A stretch of DNA of 46,955 nucleotides from a virus. Shown here one piece after another: positions 21,236 through 40,466 of the stretch. Both the position numbers and the translations under genes were made by a program. Location of the stretch: positions 1 through 46,955 of IMG/VR virus record IMGVR_UViG_3300036861_000180; one strand, 5' to 3'. The notes under the pieces are model-generated. The model saw only the letters and a list, made by a program, of their open reading frames with translations, was not told where the DNA came from and searched no databases. Numbering within the stretch: the stretch's first letter is position 1; the number at the start of each line of letters is the position of its first letter.

Positions 21236-21648
21236 TGGACGAGAGTAAGCTCGTTGAGCAGTTGATTGACTTCGAAGGGGAGAGGCTATTCCCCTATCTG
21301 GATTCGGTCAAGAAACTCACCATAGGAGTGGGGCGGAACCTCACCGATAAGGGTATCAGCAAAGAAGAGTCCCGCATCCTCCTCCACAATGACATCAAGG
21401 AAGTGGTGGCGGAACTCGATGCTAATCTCCCTTGGTGGTACACGATGAGCGAGGCGAGACAGAGAGTACTTGCGGATATGTGCTTCAACATGGGGATCGT
21501 TTCCTTGTTGGGCTTCAGAAATACACTCAAGGCAATGGAAGAGGGTAGATACAAGGATGCCGCAGAAGGCATGCTCGCATCCCTCTGGGCCGAACAAGTG
21601 GGGCAACGCGCCAAGACTCTAGCCGCAACCATGAAGAGGGGCATTTAG
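21235..21648 (+). CDS. Endolysin, T4-type lysozyme (glycoside hydrolase family 24)
   Basis: 137 residues; hydrolyses peptidoglycan during lysis. The catalytic triad pattern of T4 lysozyme is visible: Glu14 in LIDFEGERLFPYLD, Asp23, and Thr29 in KLTIGVGRNL. Conserved ARQRVLADMCFNMG and LGFRNTLKAMEEGRY segments follow. There is no signal peptide or SAR anchor, so it needs a holin to reach the wall. That contrasts with the exported structural proteins nearby. GTG start overlapping the previous TAG. The portal GTG overlaps its own stop. Confidence 0.9.
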   Translation: MDESKLVEQLIDFEGERLFPYLDSVKKLTIGVGRNLTDKGISKEESRILLHNDIKEVVAELDANLPWWYTMSEARQRVLADMCFNMGIVSLLGFRNTLKAMEEGRYKDAAEGMLASLWAEQVGQRAKTLAATMKRGI

Positions 21649-23633
21649 TGGCCGAGAAGAAGAAGGCAACTCGACTCGGTTCGCCTGAGTCTACTGAGAT
21701 GCATGCATTCGTGCGCGATATTGAGGAGCGCTATAACTGGTATCGCGGCCAGATGCAGGACGTGTATGAGGCGTCTAATCGGTGGTGGAGGCTCTATCTC
21801 AACAAGCGGGCCGATCCTCGCTCGCGGGATGAGGACTGGCGCGCTAACATCTTCGTGCCCAAGCCGTTCACCAACGTAGAGGCTATGACTGCGGCGGCAG
21901 TGAGTACTCTCACTAGCGCGGATCCCATCTGGCAACCCGAGGCAGTACACGATCAAGACATCGAGCGGGCGAAGAGTGTCGAGAAGCTCCTTGACTACAC
22001 CGCTCGCAAGAACTCATACACTAAGTTCCTAACCAAACTCAGCCGAGAGAAATACGTCTCGGGTACATCGTTCTTTAAAACCACATGGGTGGAGGAAGCG
22101 CATGAGGTCAACATTGTTCCTCGTCCGGGTGCAATTGATGGGCTACTCTCTGCTATCGAGGATGCTAAGCTCGCTGGCGCGGTAGATCCTCCCGATTGGC
22201 AGCAGTATCAGCAGGAGTTCATGCAGTGGAGGGAGCTCGTCAACAAGTCGGGTAAGGCTAAGATCCCTGAGCCTCCCTATGGTGGGCCTACGCGGGTAGT
22301 CCGCTACCGAGGCCCCAAGTTCACTCGCCTCTCCATCTACGATGTGATACTCGACCCCCTCGTGGATGAAATCGACGATCAGAATTTCATCGTCCACCGC
22401 ATCGTGAAACCTCGCGCATGGGTGGAGGAGCGGGCATCCAAGGGCTTCTACAACAAGGAAGCAGTGGGGGCGAGTCTCAACCAGTGGGATGGTCGCCGCA
22501 TGTCCGAGTGGGAGGCGCAACTAGCGCAGGACCGTGGCATCCTCGGCGGGGGTGAGACTTCCTCGGATCCCCAGTTCCGTGACTCCTGCGAACTCCTTGA
22601 AGTCTGGCAACCCGATGGTGAAGTGCCATTCGCCATCGTAATGAATCGGAAGGCAGTCATTAACAAGAATCCTTACTCGATGCCATTCGAGCATGGGATG
22701 TGCGCGATTAGTGCGGTTAGGAACATCGTCATCCCCGGGCAGTTCTTCGGACAGAGTGCGTTGCAGGCACCCGAGTCGCTATTCGATGAGCTTAACAAGC
22801 TCAGGAATCTCCGCTCGGATGGCGCAACCCTCAACGTCCTCCCCATCTTCACGAAGCTCAAGGAAGTGGGGCTCCCGGACGCACTCCGCAAGATTCGACC
22901 GGGTTCCATCATCCCCATGAGCCGTCCTGATGGGATTCAAGCACTCGTCAAGGCCCCGATGCCCCCCGAGGCTTACCGTGAGCCTGAAGAAATCAACCGC
23001 GAAATCGACGATGCCATGCAAGTCTACGACTCCACCCGAGGAGCGCCTGCTACCGTTGGGCGAGTGACCGGCACTGAGTTCTCCGGACGAGCAGCACAGG
23101 CGGGCCTCAGAGGTAAGCTAGACATCCAGTTCCAAGAGGAGGATATGCTCCCCTCCTTGCATCAAGCCATCTCCCTTTGGGCTCAGATGAGCGACGAGCC
23201 TATCAGGGTGAAGGCGAGTGGGGAGCCTAGCCCATTCAAGGATCTGAGTAAGGCGGATTTGGTTGAGTCTCTTGATATGCAGTTCCGATTCAGGGGAGTC
23301 ACCAAGGCACTCAATCGTGACATGCAGATTCAGCAACTCACCCTCTTCGCGGATAAGTTTGGAGCCAACTTGCTGCCCCAAGAGATGCGGCTTCTCATGC
23401 GCCTCATCCTCGAAGACGCGGACCTCCGTGGAGCCTCTCGCGTCATCTCCGCTGAAGGCACCATGCAGAAGACTCAGGATTACGAGATGCAGAGGAATGC
23501 GGCACTCGGGCAATTGCAAGCCCAGACCGATCAGCAACAGGCCGCAGCGTCGAACCCGCCGGGGGGACAGGCACCCCCCGCACCACCGCAACCACCCCAG
23601 GGGGGGGGAACAAGTGGACCACCGCAGGGATAG
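21648..23633 (+). CDS. Portal protein
   Basis: 661 residues; the dodecameric portal forms the DNA entry and exit ring. Recognisable features are the N-terminal RWWRLYLNKRADPRSRDEDW, the YVSGTSFFKTTW strand, RLSIYDVILDPLVDEIDDQN, and the stem region SLFDELNKLRNLRSDGATLN followed by PGSIIPMSRPDG. The C-terminal crown region (EINREIDDAMQVYDSTRGAP) leads to a Gln/Pro/Gly-rich tail. GTG start. The portal lies near the 3' end of the late block, far from the capsid gene; in most podoviruses it precedes the scaffold. Confidence 0.88.
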   Translation: MAEKKKATRLGSPESTEMHAFVRDIEERYNWYRGQMQDVYEASNRWWRLYLNKRADPRSRDEDWRANIFVPKPFTNVEAMTAAAVSTLTSADPIWQPEAVHDQDIERAKSVEKLLDYTARKNSYTKFLTKLSREKYVSGTSFFKTTWVEEAHEVNIVPRPGAIDGLLSAIEDAKLAGAVDPPDWQQYQQEFMQWRELVNKSGKAKIPEPPYGGPTRVVRYRGPKFTRLSIYDVILDPLVDEIDDQNFIVHRIVKPRAWVEERASKGFYNKEAVGASLNQWDGRRMSEWEAQLAQDRGILGGGETSSDPQFRDSCELLEVWQPDGEVPFAIVMNRKAVINKNPYSMPFEHGMCAISAVRNIVIPGQFFGQSALQAPESLFDELNKLRNLRSDGATLNVLPIFTKLKEVGLPDALRKIRPGSIIPMSRPDGIQALVKAPMPPEAYREPEEINREIDDAMQVYDSTRGAPATVGRVTGTEFSGRAAQAGLRGKLDIQFQEEDMLPSLHQAISLWAQMSDEPIRVKASGEPSPFKDLSKADLVESLDMQFRFRGVTKALNRDMQIQQLTLFADKFGANLLPQEMRLLMRLILEDADLRGASRVISAEGTMQKTQDYEMQRNAALGQLQAQTDQQQAAASNPPGGQAPPAPPQPPQGGGTSGPPQG

Positions 23634-25546: not shown

Positions 25547-26293
25547 ATGGGCCTCGGAGCTATCAAAGATAAACTCATTCATAAGTTAGCCCTCAGATGG
25601 CTCCGGGGCAAACTCAGCAATATCCGCGAATCTAAGGAGGAGAGTACTTTGAGTAAGCTATTGAAATTCTGCGATGGTTGGAAGTTCATCATTGGTGGAG
25701 CTACCCTCCTCGTGGTGAAGGTCTGGGATGGGATGCACGGGACTCATTACGGGGACTTCACGGGGAGTCTCCTCGCAGCCTTCGGGTGGGACTCGGAGGG
25801 TGGAGGATTCGCGGCCGAGGCTGCCGGGCCTACCATAGTGCTGATTGGAATCGTCCACCAGTTCATCAAGGCGGGTAAGCAGGCTCACGCGGGAGCGCCC
25901 ATCGCCTCCCTCCTCAGTTCCGAGGGCTATGTCATCAAGCATGAAGTAGACCTAGCTGAGGGTAAGCCATCCGCCGAGAAGACTGCCGACAAGGCGATTG
26001 AAGCGGTACTCAAGAAGGAAGACGACATGGAACTCGAATGGAAGACGGTTGGGAAGGTGCCTGAAGTCAAGGTACTTCCCAAACTGGAGATTCCAGTGCA
26101 GGAACTCAAGCCCGAGCCTGCTCCCGCGCCCGCCCCCGAATCCACCACCCCCCGCCTTGTGGATATGCGGAGTAAGGTCGGGCTGGCGATTGGGGCTAAG
26201 GTTCCTCTCCCTGGCGGCAAGTGGGGAGTGGTGATCTCTTCTAAGGAGCAGTCCTCGACCGGCTATACCTACCTCGTGTCGGAGATCCAGTAA
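25547..26293 (+). CDS. Holin-like membrane protein with a possible second start
   Basis: 248 residues from ATG 25547, or 214 from TTG 25649. After an amphipathic N-terminus come two hydrophobic segments, WKFIIGGATLLVVKVW and GPTIVLIGIVHQFIKAG. A charged helical region, a Pro/Ala linker (PEPAPAPAPE) and a small C-terminal domain (VGLAIGAKVPLPGGKWGVVI) follow. The ATG has no visible ribosome site, whereas the in-frame TTG at residue 35 is preceded by an ideal AAGGAGGAGA. Two products may be made from one gene. Holin is the best guess, from topology and place. Confidence 0.55.
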   Translation: MGLGAIKDKLIHKLALRWLRGKLSNIRESKEESTLSKLLKFCDGWKFIIGGATLLVVKVWDGMHGTHYGDFTGSLLAAFGWDSEGGGFAAEAAGPTIVLIGIVHQFIKAGKQAHAGAPIASLLSSEGYVIKHEVDLAEGKPSAEKTADKAIEAVLKKEDDMELEWKTVGKVPEVKVLPKLEIPVQELKPEPAPAPAPESTTPRLVDMRSKVGLAIGAKVPLPGGKWGVVISSKEQSSTGYTYLVSEIQ

Positions 26294-26442
26294 TGGCGAG
26301 TTGGGGTTGGGTGCTGAAACTCCGTGGCCTGATGACTGGGCTCACTGATCTACTCCTGAAGGGCAGGCAGGCGGGTCTCTGGCAGGAGGGATCTGGTTAC
26401 ATCCCCCCCGAGAAGCCTCTTGACTATACCCGAAAGCACTAA
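26293..26442 (+). CDS. Small protein, 49 aa, before the terminase nuclease gene
   Basis: Starts MASWGWVLKLRGLMTGLTDL at a TAATG overlap and ends DYTRKH. Amphipathic helix followed by a polar tail. It overlaps the start of the terminase nuclease frame by 23 bases, suggesting coupled translation. No family recognised. Confidence 0.5.
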   Translation: MASWGWVLKLRGLMTGLTDLLLKGRQAGLWQEGSGYIPPEKPLDYTRKH

Positions 26443-27502
26443 TTTCCTAGACCCCTCAGAGGAACAATCGGGAGATTTTCCCGACTCAGGCTGCACCGTC
26501 CGAACCACGATGTCCGGGTGGCGAGTCATAGACCTCTCGTATTGGGCCATCCCCGAGCGCCGTAAACCCTCGTGGCGGGCTGACAAAGAGCGCCTGATGG
26601 GCAAGAGGCGCTTTGCTCGCGAGTTCCTGCGTGATTGGGACACTGCGGCGGGAGACCCCTACTACCCCGAGTTCCAAGAGTTCGGGCGAGAGAAATACGT
26701 CCACTCCCTAGACTCCCTTCCCAAGGGCGTCACACTATTCCGTGGGTTCGACTTCGGCATTCGTCGGCCATCTTGTGTATGGGGGGCTTACTCCTACCCC
26801 CAAGACCGTCTCTGGATCCTCCGCGAGTTCATCCCCCAGAACAAGAGCGCGGCGGACGGGCTAGGGACTCATCACTTCCGAGATACAGTCCTCTTCCTAT
26901 CGGGAGAAATTCCCTATGAGCAGCTATCCGAGCGGGCTCAGTACTGGGTGGATTGGTACGCGGAGAACGGGTATCCGGAGGGGCCGTGGTTCGAGCCCTC
27001 CATCCTCTGGGAGAACTTCGCAGGGCCGGAGTGCATGAGAACTGAGGCGAATGCAGCTAGAGACCCCAGGGACGCGACCGCTGCGGCGATATTCGAGTCG
27101 GGGGGTATCCCTCTCACCTACCAAGCGGGCCAAGTCAAAGCTCGCCATGAGATATTCCGGCGATTCCTAGGACTTCGCCCCGATGGCTTCCCGGGGGTGC
27201 TCTTCGATCCCTCGTGTCAAGAGCTTCTCCGCGCTATGGGAGGAGCCTTCACATTCGCGAAGGAGACCGCAGGGAATCCAGTCCCCGACCGTCCTCGCAA
27301 GGATGGGCATTACGATAACATCATTGATGCACTTACCTACGCGGTGTGCGCGCTAGTCCCCTCGGACTCCATGCCATTGGCGCGTAGAGCCCCGACCGGC
27401 GAGTATGCTCCCAAGGCGATGGGCTCTGAGGAGTCTGTAGGCTGGTATGAGACCACGGGGAAGATCAATCCCGAGAGTAGACCCCTAGTCGTCGCCCCCT
27501 GA
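26420..27502 (+). CDS. Large terminase, nuclease half (RNase H-like domain)
   Basis: 360 residues from TTG 26420 (ATG 26510 is an alternative, without a ribosome site). It has the linker typical of large terminases (SGWRVIDLSYWAIPERRKPS...RRFAREFLRDWDTAAG) and then the headful or end-cutting nuclease fold. Asp111 lies in LFRGFDFGIRRPSCVWG, a glutamate in LWILREF, and Asp299/Asp303 in HYDNIIDALTYAV, the metal-binding acidic residues. No Walker motifs are present. The matching ATPase half is on the opposite strand at 27830-28678. The C-terminus overlaps the next, convergent gene by 18 bases. Confidence 0.8.
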   Translation: MTIPESTNFLDPSEEQSGDFPDSGCTVRTTMSGWRVIDLSYWAIPERRKPSWRADKERLMGKRRFAREFLRDWDTAAGDPYYPEFQEFGREKYVHSLDSLPKGVTLFRGFDFGIRRPSCVWGAYSYPQDRLWILREFIPQNKSAADGLGTHHFRDTVLFLSGEIPYEQLSERAQYWVDWYAENGYPEGPWFEPSILWENFAGPECMRTEANAARDPRDATAAAIFESGGIPLTYQAGQVKARHEIFRRFLGLRPDGFPGVLFDPSCQELLRAMGGAFTFAKETAGNPVPDRPRKDGHYDNIIDALTYAVCALVPSDSMPLARRAPTGEYAPKAMGSEESVGWYETTGKINPESRPLVVAP

Positions 27503-27811
27503 GACTTCCATGTCTAAGCGGTAAAGCTCCACCGTCGCTCCCTGCTTGAGCCTCACCTCGAAGTGATGCGCTCCCGGCCCGAGTACCCGCTCAAACCTCT
27601 CCGACCAATAGTAGTGCTCGGGGAGATCCTCGAAGGGCTCGCAGTCAGACTCCCGGAAGGATCGAGTTCCATCCGACCAAGTGAGTTCCACACTAGGACA
27701 GTACCAGGACTCGCTAGGCTTCTCAATCGCCGCTCTAATGGCTATGCGAACTGGGGCAATACCGAGACGGGGGGAGAGGGTGACGAGAGTGGCGAGTAAC
27801 AGGGAGAGCAT
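27485..27811 (-). CDS. Small putative secreted protein between the two terminase halves
   Basis: 108 residues with a hydrophobic N-terminus (MLSLLLATLVTLSPRLGIAP) that may be a signal peptide or anchor. The rest includes SVELTWSDGTRSFRESDCEP then GPGAHHFEVRLKQGATVELY, a PKD/Ig-like 'W-DG...DC-P...GPG-H-F-V-L' pattern of exported beta domains. No ribosome site is obvious at the ATG. It is the last gene of the leftward block and overlaps the terminase nuclease tail. Function unknown. Confidence 0.55.
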   Translation of the reverse strand: MLSLLLATLVTLSPRLGIAPVRIAIRAAIEKPSESWYCPSVELTWSDGTRSFRESDCEPFEDLPEHYYWSERFERVLGPGAHHFEVRLKQGATVELYRLDMEVSGGDD

Positions 27812-27829
27812 GTATACGAGTATGACATA

Positions 27830-28678
27830 CTACCTCTGATCCCACCCCTCGGCCATGTTGGGCATCCTCTCCTCCTCCTCTACCCTCTCCGCAGCTAGAT
27901 ACCTACTCGCATCGCCATCATTGAGGATGGCGCGGCACTCGGCAGCCCCGGGGTTCCCCACATTCGGGGTAGTCAAGACCCAGAGGCGGGACGCACTCGC
28001 GTGTGCCGCTTGGAGCATGGCTGCGAAGGTCTCTTGGAATGCTGCCTCGTCAATAAGTACGATACTAGGTGTCGGCCCTCTAAATGCCGCAACTGCCGCA
28101 TTCTGTCCCACTGCCGTGATATCGCTATCAGTTCGGAGGAAATCAGCCCTGTGGACTGGCTCAGATGATAGAGGATAGGCATGTTGGAACCACGGGGGAG
28201 TGCGTCCATGCACATGCCGAATCTTGTCTCTAAGGAGATCACTAGCCTCCTCCTCCTTATGCTTTGATATGAAGTGCTTGCGCCCATGCTTGAATAGCGC
28301 ATCCCAATACAGCCCCAGGTTAGCACACCATGTAGCCATCACCTGCCTCGGCTTGTTCACGAAGATGTGTTGATGGGGGCCGAAAAACTCATGGGCGAGG
28401 ATACGCAAGTAAGGGCGATCTTGGGGGAACGGCTTGTATGGATGCTTCTCGTCTGACTCATCTTTGGTGAGGATGACTGGGGGATTGCCTGGAGTGGTGG
28501 GGTCTGTCGCGGTTAGGAATGTCCAGAAGTCAGAGCCCCAGAGGTCAACGAGTGCCTGCCTCTCAGGAGTCAATTCCCCTGAGTCCGCAGAGGAGAAGAG
28601 GGAGCCTAGACCCTTCCCCGCCTTCTTCTTCTTGAGTCTCCCTGTTGAATCGGTCTGGCCTATGAGACGCTTAGGCAT
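27830..28678 (-). CDS. Large terminase, ATPase half
   Basis: 282 residues. Motor-domain motifs are in order: the adenine-side region PYKPFPQDRPYLRILAHEFF; a deviant Walker A, VNKPRQVMATW (residues 107-117), as seen in terminases whose P-loop lysine lies early; Walker B SIVLIDEAAF (205-214) with its catalytic glutamate; and the coupling motif VLTTPN (234-239). The sequence ends about 43 residues later with no nuclease domain. That domain is on the opposite strand at 26420-27502. Full-length large terminases usually have 450-600 residues; the two halves together have 642. The ATG overlaps the previous stop by 8 bases. Confidence 0.8.
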   Translation of the reverse strand: MPKRLIGQTDSTGRLKKKKAGKGLGSLFSSADSGELTPERQALVDLWGSDFWTFLTATDPTTPGNPPVILTKDESDEKHPYKPFPQDRPYLRILAHEFFGPHQHIFVNKPRQVMATWCANLGLYWDALFKHGRKHFISKHKEEEASDLLRDKIRHVHGRTPPWFQHAYPLSSEPVHRADFLRTDSDITAVGQNAAVAAFRGPTPSIVLIDEAAFQETFAAMLQAAHASASRLWVLTTPNVGNPGAAECRAILNDGDASRYLAAERVEEEERMPNMAEGWDQR

Positions 28679-30764: not shown

Positions 30765-31267
30765 GCAAGTTTCTCTCTAGCCACCTCATGGGGGCAACGG
30801 CCATACTTGCCAATGGCGAAATTGCAGTTCATGCAGAGGAGTTGATATTCATCCTTCGGGAAACCAGAGTCTCTCAGCCACCGATAGAATGAATACGATC
30901 CACCCAGAGCCTCGCGGTGCTTGTTGCCACCACCGCTCTTGTGGTCGATTGAGAGAAACTCCCAACCAGTCTCCCAACAGCACTCACACCGACCGCCGTA
31001 AGCCGCGATAACGAGCGTCTTCAGATTACGTCGTATCTGCTTTAGCTTTACCGATTTCTTGTCTCGGCTACGCCTCTGGTACTGTTTGTGCCACTCGTTG
31101 ATCTCCTCTCCCTTAGTCTCCCTCCGGAGTCGAGCGCGGGCTTTAGCACAAGTGATGCAGTCTCTCTGTAGACCGTTCTTCCGGAGATGGCAGTAGTGTG
31201 GCGACGGGCCGCATTTCCCGCATGAGTAGGGTTGCGCCTCACATTGAGCGACATGCCCTAGCGCCAT
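30761..31267 (-). CDS. HNH-family endonuclease-like protein
   Basis: 168 residues. N-terminal zinc knuckles (YSCGKCGPSPHYCHLRKNG...RDCITCAKARARLRRE), then a basic helix region and an HNH core: GGRCECCWETGWEFLSIDHK (CxxC and the DH catalytic pair), SFYRWLRDSGFPKDEYQLLC, then MNCNFAIGKYGRCPH (the N and second Cys pair). This arrangement is typical of free-standing phage HNH nucleases, often homing-type. Overlaps the previous gene by 10 bases. Confidence 0.8.
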   Translation of the reverse strand: MALGHVAQCEAQPYSCGKCGPSPHYCHLRKNGLQRDCITCAKARARLRRETKGEEINEWHKQYQRRSRDKKSVKLKQIRRNLKTLVIAAYGGRCECCWETGWEFLSIDHKSGGGNKHREALGGSYSFYRWLRDSGFPKDEYQLLCMNCNFAIGKYGRCPHEVAREKLA

Positions 31268-32019
31268 GCTGAGCCATTATTGTCAATCATCCCCACGTCT
31301 CCGATGATCCGAGCGGAGATCCTGTTGAGGATTATCACGTCCGACTGGCATCGCTCCACAAGGAGTTTCCAGCACGCCTCATCATCGTTGAGTAGCGCGT
31401 CTCTCCAGACGTTTTCCCCTAGTGGCATCTTCTGGCCTAGGCTAAGAAAGTTGGCGACCGTTTGAAGAGAGTTGTTGCTTAGCGCATACTTCTTCCAAGC
31501 GATGGCACAGGGATCCACGAGTTTCTTCTCGCGCCAGTTGAACCCGTATTTCATCGCTAGAGTTCTCATCCAGGGAATATCAAAGCGGTTGGAGTTATGC
31601 CCATACAAAACGTGGCACTCGTCCAATTTAGTCGCAATGATCTTGGCGAGTTCACCATCATCACCGCGTCGGGTAGGCCAATCAGGAGAGTGATCGCGGA
31701 GGGTATAGGTGTGCATCTCTGGCTTACTCCCCCCTCTGTGAATCATGATGCAGCCTACCATGAGGACTCCCCAGTTACGGTGGAGGGAGAAGGTTTCTAG
31801 GTCGAAGACACCCTGCACTATCGGGGGGAGGAGATCGCTACCCGCCGAGTTGTTAACAGTGGGAGGAAGATCAACTCCCGCCCCTACTAGTTCCGAGTCA
31901 ATATCTCGACACTGAGCACACCTAGTCTGCCCCTGCGCGTATGTACCCTTGTTGCGGCTTGGGCGGAGTGGGACGAACTCATTACCACAGACACTACAAT
32001 TGCGGCGCGCATAGGGCAT
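31258..32019 (-). CDS. DnaQ/RNase H-like 3'-5' exonuclease with N-terminal zinc ribbon
   Basis: 253 residues. Residues 1-40 hold two CxxC pairs (CSVCGNEF, CAQCRD). The exonuclease fold follows: VFDLETFSLHRNWGVLMVG (DxE motif I), HVLYGHNSNRFDIPWMRTLA (motif II with N and D), then KLVDPCAIAWK and SLQTVANFL, ending with RCQSDVIILNRI (motif III Asp). Similar to YprB-like DEDD exonucleases. The polymerase nearby also has its own exonuclease domain, so this may serve repair or recombination. Confidence 0.75.
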   Translation of the reverse strand: MPYARRNCSVCGNEFVPLRPSRNKGTYAQGQTRCAQCRDIDSELVGAGVDLPPTVNNSAGSDLLPPIVQGVFDLETFSLHRNWGVLMVGCIMIHRGGSKPEMHTYTLRDHSPDWPTRRGDDGELAKIIATKLDECHVLYGHNSNRFDIPWMRTLAMKYGFNWREKKLVDPCAIAWKKYALSNNSLQTVANFLSLGQKMPLGENVWRDALLNDDEACWKLLVERCQSDVIILNRISARIIGDVGMIDNNGSAWR

Positions 32020-32217
32020 CTATTTACCTCGTTCCCGCAACTCGTCTGCGGCCATGTTTAGGGCGATGGCTAGGGTGCGGAGTTGGGCTTCACTTAGATA
32101 TAGTCTGGCGTACTGAGCCTCGTCATCATCATAAATCTCTATCTTGGCTTGTGCGTCGCTGGTGGTCACGGTGAGATGAGATCCGTATGACTTGACCATA
32201 AACTCAAATTGGTTCAT
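32020..32217 (-). CDS. Hypothetical protein, 65 aa
   Basis: ATG 32217 with GGGGAG, overlapping the polymerase stop (ATGA). Reads MNQFEFMVKSYGSHLTVTTS then ARLYLSEAQLRTLAIALNMA; a beta strand pair and one helix. Lies between the polymerase and an exonuclease; role unknown. Confidence 0.6.
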   Translation of the reverse strand: MNQFEFMVKSYGSHLTVTTSDAQAKIEIYDDDEAQYARLYLSEAQLRTLAIALNMAADELRERGK

Positions 32218-34766
32218 TTCAGGCTCCCCCAATTCTTCCCCACCACCATCTTAGACTCAATAGGTATCCCGAACCTCTCCGAGTCGGCGCACATAGCCTC
32301 CATGATGATCCACTTAGCATCCTCGAATACCCCCTCTGGACCCATGAAGACTAGCTCATCGTGGTATTGGAGGAGCGGAAGCACGCCCGCAAGCCGTGGT
32401 CTCTCTCCCCCCCGGCCCGTAATTGCCGCCCACACCCGCACCATCGCTCGCTTGATGACTTCCTGCGCGGTCCCCGAGATGACATGCGCGAACCCTTGTC
32501 TGACAGCTTCTTCGCGTAGATAGTCGAGTCTATCGCCATGCAGATAAATCGCAGGGAGGTAGCGACGGCGACCAAGCTCTGTGCGAGCATATCCAGTTGA
32601 TCGGATAAAGTCTGTGGTGCGGTCGATGAGGGCTCGGACTCCTGGGTAGGTATCGAACCATCCGGAAATGATGTCCCCACATTGTGTCTTGGAGAACTTG
32701 GGCGATCTATCTTCATTAACTATCCCCTCCTGAATGAGCCCCTCGAAGAGCGACTTTGCTCCCCCACCGTAGAGCATTCTGAAGTTGACTATCTTGGCGG
32801 CATGGCGGGCATCCTTGGCTCCCCCGAAGACTCCATCAACTGTCTCTTGGTGCAGATCCCTCGCCTCTCGATACGCTGAGAGCATGGTGGGATCTTGACT
32901 CAGAGCCGCAGTAATGCGCAACTCAATCTGAGAAAGGTCAAAGCTAGCCATCTCGTAACCCGGCGGGGCCACGAAGCACGAGCGGACTCTCCTACCAAGC
33001 TCCGTTCGACTTGGGAAAGTAAGAATCCATTCGGCAGCCCTTCCTGTCTCCACTCCTTTGAGCCGCCAGTCTGGATGATATCTAACATCTCCTCCAAGCA
33101 TAGAGGGAAGCTTATCCACGTAGGACGACTTGAGTTTGGCAAGGGTTCGGTACTCAAGAATACTCGATATAAGTGGGTGTTCTCCGATGAGTCCACTTAG
33201 AGCCTTCTTGTCGGTGGAGTCTTCTCCCCCGTCTGTCTTGCGGTAGAGTTTGCATCTCCCGGATCGCTTATACTCTGCACGGCACCAGAGGGCCACTTGA
33301 TCCGAAGAGCCGGGGTTGAAATCTGAAACCCCAGAGAGGTTGCGACAAGTTCCCAAGAGCCTTCCCGACTCTTCCTGAACGAAATGTCGAAGTTGCTCAT
33401 ATCTCCCCTCATCAAAAGGCAGCCCCACCCTGCTCATCTCCGCGAACATGGGGACTACTGCGTTGTCAAGCTCCTCAACTGGCCCGAGTCCCTGCCCGTC
33501 AATTCGGGGGGTGAATCGCGAGTAGATTCGCAGCGTGGCATCAGGATCGCGTGCCGAGTACCTCTCCACCTCCTCCCTCGGGACAATCGCAAGAGACGGT
33601 TCTTCCAAGGCGAGGAGGTAAGTGAGCGCGGGGATATCGCGCTTCTTGAGTGCCGATGCAATTTCCTTCGTCCTCTTGTCGGCATAGGTTACCTTCTCTT
33701 TCCTTGGCTTCTTGAAGGGCTTGCCCGTCTTAAGGCTGTGGGTTTGACTAGGAGTAATACTGCTATGGGCGGCCACATGACTAGCAGCACTAGCAAGAGC
33801 AGGCGGGTCATAATGTCGAGCAACAAGGCTAGCATAGTCCTCCATCTTGAGGCTTAGATGGCGTTCGGCTAGATCCTTGAGGCCAAGAGGCTCATGGCGC
33901 AGGAGGTAAGCCTGCTCCATGGTATCACGCCAGGGGATGCCCCACCCGTCTATGTCGATCCCCATGCGCTTGAGGGGCGGGAGGTCGGCTAGGGCATTGT
34001 GGAAGATGATGAGGGGCTTCTTGATCCTAATCCACTCCCCGAGTAACTGCATCTCTCGTGTCTGGTGCGGCCATACTACAATCGCCTTACCGGGTTGGGC
34101 CGACACCGACCAGCAAATGGGCTCCCCGGTCAGGGGGTAGTATTCGGTATCAACCGCGATCTCAGTAACGTCATCGTGGTTATCTATGTGGGTTACGATC
34201 TCTGTCTCCTCCGGCCCTTCATCTCCCCCTTCCCTCTCCCCCCTCCACCACTTCCCCGCTTGGGCTAGATCGAAAGCAGTCAGACTTAGGGAGTTTGAGT
34301 CTCCGTGGAGGATGCCGGCGGGATGGAAGACTGGGAAGATGGTAACGCCATCCACCCCCAAATGAGGGAGACCGTGTGCCGTGTGAAGTGCAACTTCGCC
34401 GAGTAGAGCACGTGTGGTGTATGCACCAACCGCAAGAACCATCTTTGGCTGTAGACGCGCAATTCGAGCGAGGAGACTTTCTCTCCAATAGTTGAACTCG
34501 GCCGCATCCAATTTAGGCTTATCTTTGGGAAGCTTATCATCTAGTCGCCTTTGGCAGAAGTTGTCCACATAGCAAGACCCCCGGTCTATCCACGCATACT
34601 TGTTGAGTAGAGTCCAGAAGATATCACCGCTAGGCCCCACCAGAGGAGTCTTGAGTCTAACCTCAGTAGCTCCGGGAGCCTCCCCAATGACCGCAATCTG
34701 AGCAGTGGACTCCCCGTCGCCAGGAACTTCGATCTGGAACGGCCGGGGTGTCCACGCTTTGGGCAC
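32214..34766 (-). CDS. Family A DNA polymerase fused to a UDG-like domain (SPO1-polymerase-like)
   Basis: 850 residues, GTG start. Residues 20-155 are a family-4 uracil-DNA-glycosylase-like domain: IAVIGEAPGATEVRLKTPLVG (motif A) and FPVFHPAGILH (motif B). The N-terminal cysteine pair that helps bind Fe-S in that family is absent. Residues ~200-440 form a 3'-5' exonuclease (EIAVDTEYY, IIFHNALADL, YSARDPDA). Residues ~450-850 are the PolA catalytic region: SFDLSQIELR (motif A), RHAAKIVNFRMLYGGG (motif B), YHDELVF (motif C). The same order occurs in the SPO1 polymerase group. Likely the replicative polymerase; no primase was recognised. Confidence 0.9.
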   Translation of the reverse strand: MPKAWTPRPFQIEVPGDGESTAQIAVIGEAPGATEVRLKTPLVGPSGDIFWTLLNKYAWIDRGSCYVDNFCQRRLDDKLPKDKPKLDAAEFNYWRESLLARIARLQPKMVLAVGAYTTRALLGEVALHTAHGLPHLGVDGVTIFPVFHPAGILHGDSNSLSLTAFDLAQAGKWWRGEREGGDEGPEETEIVTHIDNHDDVTEIAVDTEYYPLTGEPICWSVSAQPGKAIVVWPHQTREMQLLGEWIRIKKPLIIFHNALADLPPLKRMGIDIDGWGIPWRDTMEQAYLLRHEPLGLKDLAERHLSLKMEDYASLVARHYDPPALASAASHVAAHSSITPSQTHSLKTGKPFKKPRKEKVTYADKRTKEIASALKKRDIPALTYLLALEEPSLAIVPREEVERYSARDPDATLRIYSRFTPRIDGQGLGPVEELDNAVVPMFAEMSRVGLPFDEGRYEQLRHFVQEESGRLLGTCRNLSGVSDFNPGSSDQVALWCRAEYKRSGRCKLYRKTDGGEDSTDKKALSGLIGEHPLISSILEYRTLAKLKSSYVDKLPSMLGGDVRYHPDWRLKGVETGRAAEWILTFPSRTELGRRVRSCFVAPPGYEMASFDLSQIELRITAALSQDPTMLSAYREARDLHQETVDGVFGGAKDARHAAKIVNFRMLYGGGAKSLFEGLIQEGIVNEDRSPKFSKTQCGDIISGWFDTYPGVRALIDRTTDFIRSTGYARTELGRRRYLPAIYLHGDRLDYLREEAVRQGFAHVISGTAQEVIKRAMVRVWAAITGRGGERPRLAGVLPLLQYHDELVFMGPEGVFEDAKWIIMEAMCADSERFGIPIESKMVVGKNWGSLK

Positions 34767-35000
34767 TCAACTCCACCTTATCTCTCGGCAGTGCGTACAA
34801 TACGAGAATACGAAGCAGGCGGGCATTCCGTTCGGTTGAATCGGCCCATCCCAGTCATGATCCCTAGCCCTCTTGCACTCCCGCCGCTTGCTCCTGAGTC
34901 TCGCTTTACGCATGTACTCTACACGGTCGCCCTGAATGCGATGCTGATGGAATTCTGCCCTGTGAATGGACTCGGGGGTAGAACGGGCGGGGAGGATCAT
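34767..35000 (-). CDS. Small basic protein with a CxxC pair, 77 aa
   Basis: ATG 35000 overlaps the stop of the preceding gene (ATGA). This was preferred to a TTG at 35072, which would overlap that gene by 76 bases. Reads MILPARSTPESIHRAEFHQH; very basic middle (MRKARLRSKRRECKRARDHD) and FSYCTHCREIRW at the end. Probably nucleic-acid-binding. Its stop abuts the polymerase start. Confidence 0.6.
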   Translation of the reverse strand: MILPARSTPESIHRAEFHQHRIQGDRVEYMRKARLRSKRRECKRARDHDWDGPIQPNGMPACFVFSYCTHCREIRWS

Positions 35001-35176
35001 TTGATCCCCAGTGCGGTACATCGCGCTTTCATCTCGATTAGCCAACGCTCCTTCTCCTCGGGGGTACGACAATCGTGATAGGAGAATGGTGGGATCTCTA
35101 CTCCACAGTCAGGACAAGGAAAGTGCCAACCGAGGCCTAGTCTTGTGATCTCTCCGGTACCAGTGATGCAGGCCAT
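34997..35176 (-). CDS. Zinc-ribbon-like small protein, 59 aa
   Basis: ATG 35176 follows the previous TAG directly. Reads MACITGTGEITRLGLGWHFP, CPDCGVEIPPFSYHDC, then a helix TPEEKERWLIEMKARC. One clear CxxC plus two more cysteines. Both ends join neighbours by stop/start contact. Function unknown. Confidence 0.6.
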   Translation of the reverse strand: MACITGTGEITRLGLGWHFPCPDCGVEIPPFSYHDCRTPEEKERWLIEMKARCTALGIK

Positions 35177-36190
35177 CTAGGGCAATGCGACCGAAGCGCA
35201 GACGTGATTACCCCCACACACACTCGCCTTACTCCCCACTGCATGGCTCCTGACCACGATCTGCAATGGGTTATCATTGTTGAAGAAATCCCCCCCATCC
35301 ACCAACCACGTGTAGGGTCCGGCGAGGGTTTCGCACTTAGGGCGAGACTCACTCCCCTCCGCTCCCATCGGGCAATTGTTCCTACCCGCGAATCCATTCG
35401 CATCACACCACGCCTTATCCGAAGTCTGGGGGGTGGCGTCTACCAAGAGCCTAGCTCCCTGTCTAACCGTGAGTACGATGCGGCCGAGAGTGGGGCAAGG
35501 AGAGACCGGGCATTGGCAAACAGTCTTGAGGTGAAGACCCCCCGTGGTAGTACTGCAAATCTGTTCCTCGGGTGGGCACGGGAGTGGAGTGGGGGTTGGG
35601 GTAGATACCGGAGTCGGCTGAGGCCCCGGTAGCGCCAGATGCCAAGTATCCCTCGCACTCCCAGGTGCCCACCCGACTGTCCCATGGATCGCATCCCGCC
35701 CATCGGTGTAGATGTGGAATCCTTGGCAACTCTTCCCATCCGCGAGCAGCACGCAGACTTCATCAGAAGTCGCCTGAATACCCGCACATCCTCCATTGCT
35801 CTTGATACGCTCCACGACACTCAGGCGGAACTCGATACTAGTAGGCCCGAAGACAGTACAGCGGGACACCGGGGGACCATCGCAGGGGGCGAGCCCACTA
35901 ACCACATTCCACGCAGCCGCATTGATGGCCTTAGTCGCGGCTTCATCCGCTGGGGGGCGAGGAACTAGGAACGTTGCTCCCGGCCCATCGGGGATCACGC
36001 AGGCTTTAGGTGTGGGGATGGGAGTCGGAGTCGGGGTAGACACCGGCGTCGGCGTGGGAGTGGGATTCGGCGCAGGCAGTTTGAAATCACACCCAATGAA
36101 AGGAATGCAGATCAGGATCGCAAGTGCTATGCCGATCAGTAGGTCCGCCAATACTCGAACTGCTATATCAAGTGGATCTCTCTCTTCCAT
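35177..36190 (-). CDS. Membrane- or lipid-anchored exported protein with Pro-Thr linkers
   Basis: 337 residues from ATG 36190 with GGAGGA. Residues 10-34 are hydrophobic (IAVRVLADLLIGIALAILIC then IPFIGC), ending in a possible lipobox-like FIGC; otherwise a transmembrane anchor. Two PTPTP linkers (residues ~42-62 and ~195-215) separate two cysteine-rich domains: CTVFGPTSIEFRLSVVERIK...CVLLADGKSCQGFHIY and CQCPVSPCPTLGRIVLTVRQ...SVCGGNHVCASVAL. The linkers resemble that of the phage's lyase. An envelope protein inside the replication operon suggests early surface modification such as exclusion; this is inferred. Confidence 0.65.
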   Translation of the reverse strand: MEERDPLDIAVRVLADLLIGIALAILICIPFIGCDFKLPAPNPTPTPTPVSTPTPTPIPTPKACVIPDGPGATFLVPRPPADEAATKAINAAAWNVVSGLAPCDGPPVSRCTVFGPTSIEFRLSVVERIKSNGGCAGIQATSDEVCVLLADGKSCQGFHIYTDGRDAIHGTVGWAPGSARDTWHLALPGPQPTPVSTPTPTPLPCPPEEQICSTTTGGLHLKTVCQCPVSPCPTLGRIVLTVRQGARLLVDATPQTSDKAWCDANGFAGRNNCPMGAEGSESRPKCETLAGPYTWLVDGGDFFNNDNPLQIVVRSHAVGSKASVCGGNHVCASVALP

Positions 36191-36282
36191 CACTTCCTCC
36201 TCTCGTGATAAGCATTAACGATTAAAGCCCCCAGAACGCCGCCAATCGTTGAAGCGATAATCCAGGCCAACGTTTCAAACAT
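36190..36282 (-). CDS. Single-helix membrane peptide, 30 aa
   Basis: Reads MFETLAWIIASTIGGVLGAL then IVNAYHERRK: one membrane helix with a basic end, inside-positive by the usual rule. The stop shares a base with the start of the exported protein (TGATG), and the ATG begins four bases after the nuclease stop. It may partner the anchored protein downstream. Confidence 0.5.
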   Translation of the reverse strand: MFETLAWIIASTIGGVLGALIVNAYHERRK

Positions 36283-36285
36283 TAT

Positions 36286-37002
36286 TCACTCCCCCCTAAT
36301 AGCCTTCCATACCTTCTCACTAGTCTTCGGCCCTAATCCTGCCGCTCTCCATTGCTCTCTAGTAGCTTCTGCAAGTTCAAGAGGTGTCTTGAAGCTTCCA
36401 CAAACCTCACCAGATCGCTTCGGTCCGACCCCAGGTAAGCTCGCGGCCCATCTCTCAACCAAGCCTGTCTCAGTCCACGTACCCTCAAGAGCAGGCTTCG
36501 CGTGATGGCGGTGCGCGTCATGATCTTCCCAGGCTTTGGACGTCCACCATGAGTAACTCGCCTTGATCCAGAAGGCCGACTCTTGTTTACTCCCTGTTCT
36601 AGCAATGTGAATCCCCCCCTTCATTTCGATGGTGCTCAACCACTTCACTATGTCCGAGTACATCCAGACTTTGCGGCCCCAAGATGGTAGGTGCGAACCA
36701 TGGAGGACTAGTTTACCCTCCTCATTAGGCTTCCAGAGTCCCTCGATGAGCAACCATGCATGCTCGTAGAGCTTGACTAGACCGGGGAGTTGCACGTCAG
36801 AGAAGCGAGCGGAGGTGATGCAACTCATGAGGTCGCCTATGGTCTTATACTCGACTCCGATTGGGCACGGGCGGTCGCCTTCTCCCCTCCCCTGCCATGC
36901 GAAGTCCCCGGCTACTAGGAGTTCTTCTTGGAGTGGGACTCCAATGGATTGGAGAATCGGTACGAGCAATCTACTCCCCGCTCGTGGATCGGCGCTCAGC
37001 AA
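36286..37002 (-). CDS. ERCC4-type (XPF/Mus81-like) nuclease with helix-hairpin-helix domain
   Basis: 238 residues. TTG 37002 overlaps the previous stop by 7 bases (TTGCTGA). The nuclease core has DPRAGSRLLVPILQSIGV, LLVAGDFAW, and VEYKTIGDLMSCITSARFSD, matching the ERCC4 GD...ERKxxxDL pattern with Arg replaced by Tyr. It continues with VQLPGLVKLYEHAWLLIEG. The C-terminus has helix-hairpin-helix elements (SLPGVGPKRSGEVCGSF; GLGPKTSEKVWKAI). Such proteins cut branched or flap DNA; with Sak4-like and PD-(D/E)XK neighbours it forms a recombination set. Confidence 0.8.
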   Translation of the reverse strand: MLSADPRAGSRLLVPILQSIGVPLQEELLVAGDFAWQGRGEGDRPCPIGVEYKTIGDLMSCITSARFSDVQLPGLVKLYEHAWLLIEGLWKPNEEGKLVLHGSHLPSWGRKVWMYSDIVKWLSTIEMKGGIHIARTGSKQESAFWIKASYSWWTSKAWEDHDAHRHHAKPALEGTWTETGLVERWAASLPGVGPKRSGEVCGSFKTPLELAEATREQWRAAGLGPKTSEKVWKAIRGE

Positions 37003-37112
37003 CCGGGCTTCCTACACCGCACACAGTACCGATACCATGCGGGCCTCTTGAACTTCTCTACCACCATCCACTCAGACCACTTGTGGACGCCTAGGAAGCA
37101 GAGGAGTCTCAC
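36996..37112 (-). CDS. Small CxxC protein, 38 aa
   Basis: GTG 37112 overlaps the stop of the Sak4-like gene (GTGA), and its own TGA overlaps the nuclease TTG. Reads MRLLCFLGVHKWSEWMVVEK then YRYCVRCRKPGC. The 'C-LG-HKW-----R-C-RC' pattern is a common tiny phage and bacterial zinc-binding protein. Function unknown. Confidence 0.65.
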   Translation of the reverse strand: MRLLCFLGVHKWSEWMVVEKFKRPAWYRYCVRCRKPGC

Positions 37113-37903
37113 TCCCAAGCCTCATAATCGACATCTGGCTTGAGCAGATTGCACACCTGAGCGAATTCAGGCGAGTCGAGCACCATCCCATTAGCACTCT
37201 TGTTAGTCTTGGCGTCCACGATGCGGACCTTGAATTCCCGCCCGTCCACAAGAGTCTCGATCCACGCATCAACCGCGTGACTCGTGGCGACGTTACTCGA
37301 CTTCACCATGCGGCCAGTAGCCTCCGAGCCCTTCTTCCCATTGGGGAGGGTGACGGGGCGGTATTCCTCCTTCATGCGGGTGATGAGTACCACCACCATC
37401 TCCGCTTGGCGGGCAGTGTGGATAATCTTCGCCGTCTCCGCGTTGATCTCCCCATAGGCGAGTTGGGAGTTGGATTCGAGTTTGCCGAAGCGAGAGATGA
37501 CTTGGGCTTGCTTCATGAGATCAAGAGTGTCGATTACGATACTACGCACCCCGTTCTCCACCGCGAACTCAAAGTCCTCAAGGAAGGGAATCAGCACTTC
37601 CTTCCGCATCTGCTCACTCGCCACGTCATCGGCTTCCCTCTTGCGGTCGCGCGGGGAGAGGGGATAGGTGCGGGTGACTACCCTGGCCATCTTCTCGGCA
37701 TAGGCGGAGGTAAGCCTACTCGCCGCCCTTCTCGCCCCATGGTAATCAAACCCGAAGTGGATCACGGGGCCGGGGGCTCGGAGTGCGAGATCAGTCTTAC
37801 CCGTCCCGGGGAGTCCGGTAATCTCGATCACCACTCCCGGAGAGGTATCCTTCTCGACTGGCTTGAAGCGAGCCGCTAGGGCCGCACTCAGATCAATACT
37901 CAT
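37109..37903 (-). CDS. Sak4-like RecA-fold ATPase (recombinase)
   Basis: 264 residues from ATG 37903 (MSIDLSAALAARFKPVEKDT). P-loop GLPGTGKT at residues 30-37, a Walker B strand SIVIDTLDLMKQAQVISRFG, and a motif region EMVVVLITRMKEEYRP, as in phage Sak4 / AAA_24-type proteins. These single-domain RecA relatives act in strand annealing or exchange and are usually encoded beside a ssDNA-binding protein and a PD-(D/E)XK exonuclease, as here. It overlaps the coiled-coil gene by 11 bases. Confidence 0.75.
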   Translation of the reverse strand: MSIDLSAALAARFKPVEKDTSPGVVIEITGLPGTGKTDLALRAPGPVIHFGFDYHGARRAASRLTSAYAEKMARVVTRTYPLSPRDRKREADDVASEQMRKEVLIPFLEDFEFAVENGVRSIVIDTLDLMKQAQVISRFGKLESNSQLAYGEINAETAKIIHTARQAEMVVVLITRMKEEYRPVTLPNGKKGSEATGRMVKSSNVATSHAVDAWIETLVDGREFKVRIVDAKTNKSANGMVLDSPEFAQVCNLLKPDVDYEAWE

Positions 37904-38195
37904 CCGCCTCCCCCTCCGTATCCTCAATGACCTCTCTCAGTAAGTCGAGTATCTCCCTCACCCCCTGCCCAACCGCATCTGGCCTACTCTCCAACTCCTC
38001 TCGCATCTCGGCTAGGGTCTCCTCCATGTCCGACTTGCACTCTAGGGAGCCTCTGAGGTCGCGCTCAGCCTCCTCCAGCCTGCTACTCAGGGAGTCAACC
38101 AAGTCCGCATGGGAATCACATCGCTCTAGGATCGCGTCCCTCTGGTCTAGGAGGCGTCTGCACTCGGTGAGGAGAGAGTCAAGGGGGATACTCAT
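37893..38195 (-). CDS. Coiled-coil protein, 100 aa
   Basis: Reads MSIPLDSLLTECRRLLDQRD, then a long heptad-like helix (DSLSSRLEEAERDLRGSLEC; MEETLAEMREELESR) and an acidic end (VIEDTEGEADEY). Probably dimeric. It lies between the exonuclease and the Sak4-like gene, so a partner of either is possible. No family recognised. Confidence 0.6.
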   Translation of the reverse strand: MSIPLDSLLTECRRLLDQRDAILERCDSHADLVDSLSSRLEEAERDLRGSLECKSDMEETLAEMREELESRPDAVGQGVREILDLLREVIEDTEGEADEY

Positions 38196-38201
38196 GATGT
38201 G

Positions 38202-38918
38202 TTATACGGGTTCCCCCGCTCCTTTGTTCTCCATCTTCATCTTCATGCGGGAGATTTCAGCCCAGATGGCGTCAAGGTCGCGGTCGGTGAACTTCGCCTC
38301 GTAGATCCGCACTTGCTTTGCGTGGTTATCCATCGAGCAATTAGGGGGACATTTGGCGTCGCAATTCCACTTGTAATCCCCCCTCGCCCAGAAGACTAGC
38401 CAGTGAACCTGCTCGACTTCATATCCCGCTGCTCTAGCCGCGACTGAATACCCACCCTCTTGGAGGATCCAATGCCTGAAATGCTCATGGAAGGATTCAA
38501 CACTTGACCCCTTCCGCATACTCTGGGAGGTGAGCTTATAGGACTCCAGGGTCTTAGTAGCGGGATCATACCCATCGGGAGTCATATGAATCCCCTGGTA
38601 CTCGAACTTGATCTGCTTGGCTATGCCCGCGCGGGCCTGGAGCATATAGCGCTTGAAGGCGATGTCCATGGCTGGGTCAATTGCCATGCCCCCCGCGACT
38701 AGCTCTAGAGCCTTCTCCCAGAGGAAACCCTCTTGAGCCCTAATCCACTTAGGTTCCCCCTCGAACCCCGGCCCATACGTCTTACCCTCCTCCTTGCGAA
38801 TCTCTGAGATGATCTGACCTAGGTGGAGGCCCGGCTCCCTACCTTCCCCAACCTTAGTGCCATCCTCGCGGAGGGTATGGGCATCGGAGTCCCATCGCCC
38901 TAGATCCCTAAACTCCAA
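38202..38918 (-). CDS. PD-(D/E)XK exonuclease-like protein
   Basis: 238 residues, TTG at 38918 directly after the previous stop. Features: LHLGQIISEIRKEEGKTYGP, then RAQEGFLWEKALEL (early glutamate), and GIHMTPDGYDPATKTLESYK, where TPD and ExK supply the catalytic Asp, Glu and Lys of the RecB/Cas4-like nuclease fold. A CDAKCPPNC segment near the C-terminus could bind a metal cluster, as in Cas4-type enzymes (inference). With the Sak4-like ATPase it probably processes DNA ends for annealing recombination. Confidence 0.7.
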   Translation of the reverse strand: MEFRDLGRWDSDAHTLREDGTKVGEGREPGLHLGQIISEIRKEEGKTYGPGFEGEPKWIRAQEGFLWEKALELVAGGMAIDPAMDIAFKRYMLQARAGIAKQIKFEYQGIHMTPDGYDPATKTLESYKLTSQSMRKGSSVESFHEHFRHWILQEGGYSVAARAAGYEVEQVHWLVFWARGDYKWNCDAKCPPNCSMDNHAKQVRIYEAKFTDRDLDAIWAEISRMKMKMENKGAGEPV

Positions 38919-39197
38919 TCAGAATCTCTTCAGCCACTTCGCCACTCCTCCCCTCCACCTCGCATTAATCGGCCATGCCCGCTTCCCATACACACTCACC
39001 GCATGCATCTCCAGTAACTCTAGTTGCTCAGCCACCCACTGCGAATCATTCTCCCATCCGTCCTCGCGGGAGTCTGGGTCGCTCTCCCTGTCATCCTCCC
39101 ATTTGGTTCCGAGCCTCCGAAGTGTCTCGTGTACTACTCTCTCCTGCTCAACAGTAAGGGGCGGTTGCCCGCCCCCAGGAACCTTGGGTTTTGACAT
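38919..39197 (-). CDS. Hypothetical protein, 92 aa
   Basis: Reads MSKPKVPGGGQPPLTVEQER; helical, acidic middle (KWEDDRESDPDSREDGWEND) and a basic aromatic end (INARWRGGVAKWLKRF). The next gene begins at its stop. An AGGGG lies close to the ATG. No family recognised. Confidence 0.55.
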   Translation of the reverse strand: MSKPKVPGGGQPPLTVEQERVVHETLRRLGTKWEDDRESDPDSREDGWENDSQWVAEQLELLEMHAVSVYGKRAWPINARWRGGVAKWLKRF

Positions 39198-39228
39198 CCC
39201 CTGACTATGGGGGGTTAGAGATTGAGAG

Positions 39229-39411
39229 TCAACTGAGAATGGTCTTACTGGTCGCGGTCTTGACCGTAACCAATTTATACTCCGCGACCTTGGTTGGGCC
39301 GGACTCCTCTATCACATCATCAGGAGTCAACCCGGAGATGATGTAGTCGTTATCCCCGTCTCTCTCCAAACGGATCCAAATACTCTTAGGGAAGTTCTTG
39401 ATCTTCGGCAT
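39229..39411 (-). CDS. Small beta-rich protein, 60 aa
   Basis: ATG 39411 shares a base with the previous stop (TGATG). Reads MPKIKNFPKSIWIRLERDGD, then NDYIISGLTPDDVIEESGPT and VAEYKLVTVKTA: a compact beta fold. It follows the ssDNA-binding-like gene; role unknown. Confidence 0.6.
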   Translation of the reverse strand: MPKIKNFPKSIWIRLERDGDNDYIISGLTPDDVIEESGPTKVAEYKLVTVKTATSKTILS

Positions 39412-40190
39412 CAGAGACTCAGCGTCAACCCATCGAACTTAAACGCCTCCCCCGACGCCTTCAAGAACTTCTTATCCGCGACCTTAGCGAGAATGCCCGC
39501 CTTGTCGGGATCGCCGTTGATGAGCTTGGAGACAGTTCGGCTCGTATCCGCGATGGCGAGCTTCCCACCCGGAGCCTCGGCGATTGCCTTCACGATGTAC
39601 TCGCGGGCCTTGGCTTCAATGACGTCTGACGCCCCTGCCGCGACTCCCCCCGGGTAGCTCACCACGCTCACAGGGAGCGCAATGGTCTTATCCGCAGTAC
39701 CCTTCTGCCCCGCCTTCGGGTGTCCATCCTTGTAGGTGAACGTCCTCTGCTTCGGCTTCCCCTTCTTGTCTCCCTGCACGTAGTACTGGGTGACTTCCTT
39801 GAAGTGGAGACGATGGCCGATGAGCTTGGAGAGATCCCTCGCAATCGCACCCAAGTTCTTGATCTTCGCGTCGAAGAGAGCGGTACCGAATTGCCCTACT
39901 TCGCTGATCTTGGTGGGGGTGAAGGTATTGCCATGCTCGTCGAGGAAGGCAGTACCCGTGTCATTCGCCTTCGCTTTGTTACCCGCGTCATACCACTTGG
40001 TCCAGGGCTTATCTTCCCCATCGGCTTGGAGAGTGAGGATCAACTGCCCCCCATACTGCCCGTCTTCGCAGCGAGCATCCAACACCGTCGCGGTCCGATC
40101 ATCCAACCCAATCGACATCCCACCGGCCATGTTCTCCGGGTCAAAGGGGTTGTAATTGGGGTCGTTCACGTCGAGTTTCTTGTCGCTCAA
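39411..40190 (-). CDS. ssDNA-binding-protein-like early protein
   Basis: 259 residues; TTG 40190 with an ideal AGGAGGAACC. It begins MSDKKLDVNDPNYNPFDPEN; an OB-like region follows: RTATVLDARCEDGQYGGQLI then LTLQADGEDKPWTKWYDAGN. The C-terminal half has mixed helices. Proteins of this layout accompany Sak4-like ATPases in many phages and act as single-strand binders; OB fold and binding are inferred from pattern and context. The gene is preceded by a long structured leader (40216-40455), which may control its translation. Confidence 0.6.
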   Translation of the reverse strand: MSDKKLDVNDPNYNPFDPENMAGGMSIGLDDRTATVLDARCEDGQYGGQLILTLQADGEDKPWTKWYDAGNKAKANDTGTAFLDEHGNTFTPTKISEVGQFGTALFDAKIKNLGAIARDLSKLIGHRLHFKEVTQYYVQGDKKGKPKQRTFTYKDGHPKAGQKGTADKTIALPVSVVSYPGGVAAGASDVIEAKAREYIVKAIAEAPGGKLAIADTSRTVSKLINGDPDKAGILAKVADKKFLKASGEAFKFDGLTLSL

Positions 40191-40215
40191 GGTTCCTCCT
40201 AGTTATGAGTGAAAG

Positions 40216-40358
40216 GGGAGCATGAAGGGTGGAGTGGGTCGGGTCGGTACCATTCCGGGTCTATCTCAACCGGGTCCGATGAGATCGGGGTCACGAGCTT
40301 CCCGAGCTAGCCCAAAGCCACTCACAGGCTGCTCTCGACCACCTTCCTTCATGCTCCC
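40216..40358 (-). ncRNA. Stem-closed structured leader RNA upstream of the ssDNA-binding-like gene
   Basis: A perfect 13-bp stem (GGGAGCATGAAGG at 40216-40228 with CCTTCATGCTCCC at 40346-40358) closes 117 bases. Inside are smaller hairpins on the minus strand (CCGAT/ATCGG; AGCC/GGCT) and five GACCC copies. There is no ORF. It abuts the tRNA-like element exactly at 40358/40359 and ends 14 bases before the gene's ribosome site. It could be a leader regulating that gene or an independent RNA. Confidence 0.5.
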
Positions 40359-40363
40359 GAAGA

Positions 40364-40449: not shown

Positions 40450-40466
40450 TTCTTCCGAAGCACGAA

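What the first reader, a model, noticed from the sequence alone, without database searches (positions are those of the whole stretch)
26420..28678. Large terminase split into two genes on opposite strands
The rightward gene at 26420-27502 has the terminase linker and RNase H-like nuclease residues (D111, D299, D303) but no Walker motifs. The leftward gene at 27830-28678 has a deviant Walker A, Walker B (SIVLIDE) and the TTPN coupling motif but no nuclease. No other terminase motor is present. The break falls between the two domains, and both halves look intact. Only a small exported-protein gene separates them. An inversion with a breakpoint in terL would explain it. The halves would then be made from different transcripts and must assemble in trans. 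I know of terminases interrupted by introns or insertions, but not of one divided between convergent operons.
Basis: partly seen in the sequence, partly recalled or inferred. Interest (0 to 1): 0.85.

Follow-up and report, generated by a model that had tools for sequence, protein, structure and literature searches.

The report
Two-gene phage terminase on opposite strands
The motor that packs this phage's DNA is made as two separate proteins, an engine and a cutter, as in a large group of uncultured relatives, but here a small flip of DNA has moved the cutter gene to the opposite strand and facing operon, so the halves must be made from different transcripts and meet as finished proteins.

Summary
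Leave-one-out profiles of relatives find the ATPase half (27830-28678, -) at E=5e-51 and the nuclease half (26420-27502, +) at E=2e-64, and no other terminase in this end-repeat (complete) genome. Predicted folds match T4 gp17 ATPase and D6E/SPP1 terminase.

The explanation needs changing. The gene was not cut by an inversion. The window's own family (L242-L247: 30-34% identity in the nuclease half, 29-35% in portal) already has terL split in two genes, always ATPase then nuclease on one strand. Of 86 non-redundant loci holding both halves, 79 are split, 7 fused, none on opposite strands. Split terminases are thus old and widespread; consecutive-gene splits are published for Arthrobacter cluster AY phages.

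Special to this genome: relative G013 has the pair in the operon facing the portal operon, and complete relative G012 has a weak homologue of the small exported gene ending its facing operon, so one ~1.4-kb inversion of [nuclease, exported gene] at the convergent operon border gives the window's order. No repeat explains it; reads could not be checked. The nuclease now sits in the structural operon, the ATPase in the replication/recombination operon; any motor must assemble in trans.

The parts
26420..27502 (+). Nuclease half of the large terminase (linker/lid segment plus RNase H-like nuclease); last gene of the rightward structural operon; start TTG 26420 (ATG 26510 is too late: homology with kin begins before it)
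27830..28678 (-). ATPase half of the large terminase (deviant Walker A around K109-R111, Walker B D210-E211, coupling motif TTPN); near the end of the leftward replication/recombination operon
27485..27811 (-). Small exported-protein gene (108 aa) between the halves; weak homologue is the last gene of the facing operon in complete relative G012 (15440-15955 -)
26293..26442 (+). 49-aa ORF whose ATG overlaps the stop of 25547-26293 and whose end overlaps the nuclease start; inferred left inversion border lies about here
   Evidence: sequence
27811..27833 (.). Inferred right inversion border, between the exported gene's start and the ATPase stop; no inverted repeat shared with the left border
   Evidence: inference
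25547..26293 (+). Holin-like membrane protein gene upstream of the nuclease (by sequence appearance; no family match)
21648..23633 (+). Portal (SU10 type), in the same operon as the nuclease half
   Evidence: (PF23899 6e-16)
4145..5335 (+). Major capsid protein (SU10 type), near the start of the structural operon
   Evidence: (PF17236 6e-37)
31258..43149 (-). Replication/recombination genes of the operon that holds the ATPase half: DnaQ-like exonuclease, DNA polymerase, ERCC4 nuclease, Sak4-like ATPase, helicase
1..127 (+). Direct end repeat (also 46829-46955): contig closes into a circle

Best explanation
The phage makes a heteromeric large terminase from two genes. (1, shown by comparison) Its lineage inherited a terL already split just after the ATP-coupling motif into an ATPase gene and a linker-plus-nuclease gene on the same strand. 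(2, inferred from kin order) One inversion of about 1.4 kb, spanning the nuclease gene and the exported-protein gene at the border of two convergent operons, exchanged these two genes: the nuclease joined the end of the structural operon, the exported gene joined the end of the replication/recombination operon behind the ATPase. (3, inferred) The two proteins assemble after translation: ATPase subunits form the ring on the portal, and the nuclease half docks on them, contributing the linker/lid and the cutting activity. (4, speculative) The two halves now follow the timing of different operons.
For: Each half fits terminase profiles and folds while no other terminase is in the complete genome. 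Closest family L242-L247 (nuclease 30-34%, ATPase 28-35%, portal E 3e-5 to 8e-104) has ATPase and nuclease as separate same-strand genes in all six. 79 of 86 non-redundant loci are split, 7 fused, 0 opposite; two more genomes closed by end repeats carry the split (G002 and G008, 127 and 121 bp). ATPase tree groups the window with L242-L247 (SH-aLRT 97). G013: portal and capsid +, nuclease 33678-34874 - and ATPase 35376-36092 - with SSB, Erf and Cas4 neighbours, the window's order with the nuclease unflipped; fragment G011 likewise has the pair facing the portal. G012: ATPase> nuclease> ... <exported gene, from which inverting [nuclease, exported] gives the window's ATPase> exported> <nuclease. 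Both halves are as conserved relative to kin as portal and capsid, so neither is decaying.
Against: No reads, so the inversion is not proved to be in the virus rather than the assembly. The exported-gene homology is weak (36% over 59 aa, pairwise E=2e-7; 2.5e-4 over the kin contigs; 0.005 over all loci) and in one relative only; in G012 two further genes (SSB, exonuclease) lie between nuclease and exported gene and are not in the window's segment. Complex formation in trans is not shown by any computation here. The nuclease start codon (TTG) has no clear ribosome site.
Confidence: 0.8

Rival explanations
1. One reading: an inversion breakpoint cut a previously intact, fused terL in this lineage and both pieces survived.
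For: Fused terL genes with both domain types exist (L014, L015: both halves match); an inversion is the simplest change of strand.
Against: All six closest relatives already have two genes with their own start and stop on one strand; 79 of 86 loci are split; the window's ATPase groups inside this family.
Confidence: 0.05
2. Assembly error: the 1.4-kb segment is inverted only in the contig; the real genome has ATPase and nuclease on the same strand like its kin.
For: All 79 other split loci are same-strand; a single contig shows the flip; no reads available.
Against: No inverted repeat at the borders that would mislead an assembler (best 9 nt, shuffles mean 7.8, max 11); junctions are compact and gene-like (ATPase stop 18 nt from the exported gene's ATG, 18-nt convergent overlap at 27485-27502); contig closes into a circle.
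Confidence: 0.12
3. A full-length terminase is rebuilt by trans-splicing introns or a split intein.
For: terL is a known target of group I introns in phages (PMC12363816); one relative of the split family (L299) has a LAGLIDADG insert in its ATPase half.
Against: No Rfam intron in the window or in seven kin and split loci; no extra domain in either window half; both proteins align with those of kin whose same-strand genes show no intron.
Confidence: 0.02
4. The two halves are not partners: one is a decayed or repurposed leftover and packaging uses a terminase from elsewhere.
For: The Walker A is deviant; the nuclease scores weakly against public families.
Against: Both are conserved with kin at the level of portal and capsid, with motif residues invariant; no other terminase in the complete genome; the same deviant motif runs through the whole split family.
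Confidence: 0.03

Closest known systems
Two-gene large terminase of Arthrobacter cluster AY phages (BillyTP; PMC11920828)
   Different: There the genes are consecutive; here they lie on opposite strands in facing operons. Sequence homology between the AY genes and these was not tested.
Uncultured split-terL family found here (L242-L247; G010-G015)
   Same: Homologous ATPase and nuclease halves, same split point, homologous portal and capsid.
   Different: Halves on one strand, ATPase upstream of nuclease.
T4 gp17 / RM378 gp17 (phrog_2) and phage D6E TerL
   Same: ATPase half folds as the gp17 ATPase domain; nuclease half as the D6E/SPP1 nuclease with linker.
   Different: Single polypeptide in those phages.
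terL interrupted by group I introns (Jug phages, PMC12363816)
   Same: terL coding region in pieces.
   Different: There pieces are on one transcript and spliced; here no intron and two strands.

Membership tests
Large terminase (TerL) | ATPase domain with Walker A, Walker B and coupling motif | tested here: met
   Deviant Walker A K109/R111 and Walker B D210/E211 invariant in 51 relatives; T4 gp17 fold
Large terminase (TerL) | RNase H-like nuclease domain with acidic active-site residues | tested here: met
   D111 invariant in 44; D178 in all seven kin; D299/D303 positions mostly D/E; D6E/SPP1/P22 nuclease fold
Large terminase (TerL) | Both domains in one polypeptide | tested here: not met
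   Two ORFs on opposite strands, no third ORF; hence filed as a split variant, not as an ordinary TerL
Large terminase (TerL) | ATP-driven packaging and DNA cutting | not testable with these tools
   Needs biochemistry
Split terminase (two genes, ATPase and linker-nuclease) | Homologous halves cut after the coupling motif | tested here: met
   Alignments with L242-L247 and other split loci; 79 of 86 loci split
Split terminase (two genes, ATPase and linker-nuclease) | Genes on the same strand (a shared trait of all 79 other cases, not a requirement) | tested here: not met
   Window: - and +; 0 of 79 others opposite
Intron- or intein-interrupted terL | Group I intron or intein at the break | tested here: not met
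   No Rfam match; no intein domain
Arthrobacter cluster AY split terminase | Sequence homology to the AY genes | not tested
   Record not fetched

The most novel reading that the evidence does not exclude
A DNA-packaging motor whose ATPase and nuclease are under separate operon control, replicative versus structural, so that subunit ratio and the timing of genome cutting can be set independently; with a widespread, apparently undescribed family of natural two-protein terminases behind it.
Probability: 0.3. Interest if true: 0.8.

Novelty: new variant of a known kind. Interest (0 to 1): 0.62.

Why it matters
In textbook terminases the engine and the cutter are covalently joined, and how motor firing is coupled to cutting is argued from one-chain structures. 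A large natural family in which they are separate proteins, with fused, overlapping, gene-separated, order-reversed and opposite-strand forms, offers ready-made two-part motors to test that coupling and the stoichiometry of each part. It also warns annotators that a 'missing' or 'truncated' terminase in a complete phage genome may be two genes far apart, which affects terminase-based phage taxonomy and completeness calls.

Tried and rejected
Single-protein scans of viral contigs with either half or the portal found nothing; only alignments seeded with distant fused terminases worked. Solved-structure sequence search found only noise. Pfam gave no significant match for either half. Genome-contig scan for the ATPase half found nothing and wider alignments gave no usable pattern. 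Group I introns rejected. Invertible switch rejected: no inverted repeats at the borders. A first nuclease tree placed the window as a long lone branch (two split rows, L122 and L129, were mislabelled fused there); in a second it joins the split group and one clade is not rejected (p-AU 0.70), and the ATPase tree with true kin groups it with them. Saffermanviridae, Mel-JY34 and CRP-810 share portal or capsid similarity but have one-gene terminases without detectable match to the halves. MW202803, a hit to a split ATPase, proved fused. Terminator and promoter patterns: none found near the border.

Full report
Observation. The ATPase half matches terminase family phrog_2 (E=9.6e-10) and aligns over residues 65-271 with RM378 gp17 (E=3e-11). 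The nuclease half is nearly invisible to public profiles (phrog_6672 E=0.046) but tblastn finds the nuclease part of fused terminases (E=8e-7). With profiles built from relatives and the window left out, the halves score E=5.4e-51 and 1.6e-64, and nothing else in the circularised genome comes close. AlphaFold models are confident (pLDDT 85.5 and 81.7) and Foldseek returns T4 gp17 ATPase (E=8.7e-11) and D6E, SPP1 and P22 terminases. The contig has an exact 127-bp end repeat, so it appears complete and there is no hidden third gene.

Where the cut is. The ATPase protein ends about 44 residues after the TTPN coupling motif; the nuclease protein begins with the segment that in RM378 follows that motif (nuclease residues 42-70 align with RM378 215-243, weak alone, E=0.29), and 268 columns of the nuclease model align with D6E terminase. 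So the linker/lid travels with the nuclease (inference from these alignments).

Relatives. Seeding alignments with distant fused terminases led to loci L013 and L023, where ATPase and nuclease are two genes on one strand with a small gene between, and to L014/L015, where both halves are one 514-aa protein. Further scans gave a large set. Among 86 non-redundant loci with both halves, 79 are split and 7 fused; of the split ones 48 have ATPase then nuclease within 500 nt, 11 further apart, 20 have the nuclease upstream of the ATPase by 1.2-2.1 kb; none has them on opposite strands. A few overlapping pairs could in principle be frameshifts in fused genes, but most cannot. In the nuclease-first loci whose right flank I read, the ATPase is the last gene before a convergent operon (L165, L174, L196, L216, L227).

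The window's own family is L242-L247, on four contigs of 45-48 kb plus two fragments. They share the nuclease (30-34%) and ATPase (28-35%), and the four long contigs also portal (29-35%) and capsid (29-30%); the ATPase tree groups all seven (SH-aLRT 97). All six have ATPase then nuclease on one strand.

How the window's order arose. In G013 the capsid and portal run rightward while nuclease and ATPase run leftward in the facing operon, beside SSB, Erf and Cas4 genes (named by sequence appearance): the window's layout except for the nuclease strand. Fragment G011 also has the pair facing the portal. In the complete genome G012 the last gene of the facing operon is a weak homologue of the window's exported gene. 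Written along the ATPase strand, the ancestor reads ATPase> nuclease> <exported, and the window reads ATPase> exported> <nuclease, which one inversion of the last two genes produces. That step is inferred; SSB and exonuclease genes lying between in G012 are absent from the window's segment. No repeats mark the borders, which argues against both a programmed switch and a simple assembler flip, but only reads can decide.

Mechanism. Both proteins are conserved against kin as strongly as portal and capsid, with motif residues kept, so both are presumably used. Different strands mean different transcripts; with no intron or intein, the halves must meet as proteins. The likely picture is an ATPase ring on the portal with the nuclease half bound to it; this follows from how one-chain terminases work (general knowledge) and is not shown here. 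That the two operons differ in timing is inferred from gene content: DNA polymerase, helicase and a Sak4-like protein beside the ATPase, portal, capsid and lysozyme beside the nuclease.

Known and new. Two consecutive terminase genes are reported for Arthrobacter cluster AY phages (PMC11920828). Intron-split terL is known (PMC12363816). My eight literature searches found no report of halves on opposite strands; most subscription papers are not in the library. I file this as a new variant of a known kind, inside an apparently undescribed, diverse family of split terminases.

Noticed in passing
L013:9677-10864, L023:3520-4701, L124, L125: In one branch of the split family the nuclease half starts with an endonuclease VII/HNH-type zinc ribbon (phrog_1035 E down to 4e-8), perhaps a remnant of a homing endonuclease that once sat between the halves.
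   Followed up: partly
L299:2399-3976: ATPase half interrupted by about 270 aa with a LAGLIDADG domain, a probable intein in a split terminase.
   Followed up: partly
L165, L174, L196, L216, L227: Large group with the nuclease gene upstream of the ATPase gene and other genes between; ATPase is last before a convergent operon.
   Followed up: partly
L109, L118: T4-like ATPase in a 282-aa ORF: another broken or intron-bearing terL.
   Followed up: no
window 23955-25397: Beta-helix, pectate-lyase-like protein between portal and the terminase nuclease.
   Followed up: no
window 40751-41419: Protein with alanine/arginine-rich low-complexity repeats in its C-terminal part, with a homologue in G012.
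   Followed up: no
MW495066.1 (L011): Record named Microcystis phage MaAM05 (274 kb) carries lepA, proS, kimA and a tRNA and looks like bacterial chromosome with a prophage.
   Followed up: no
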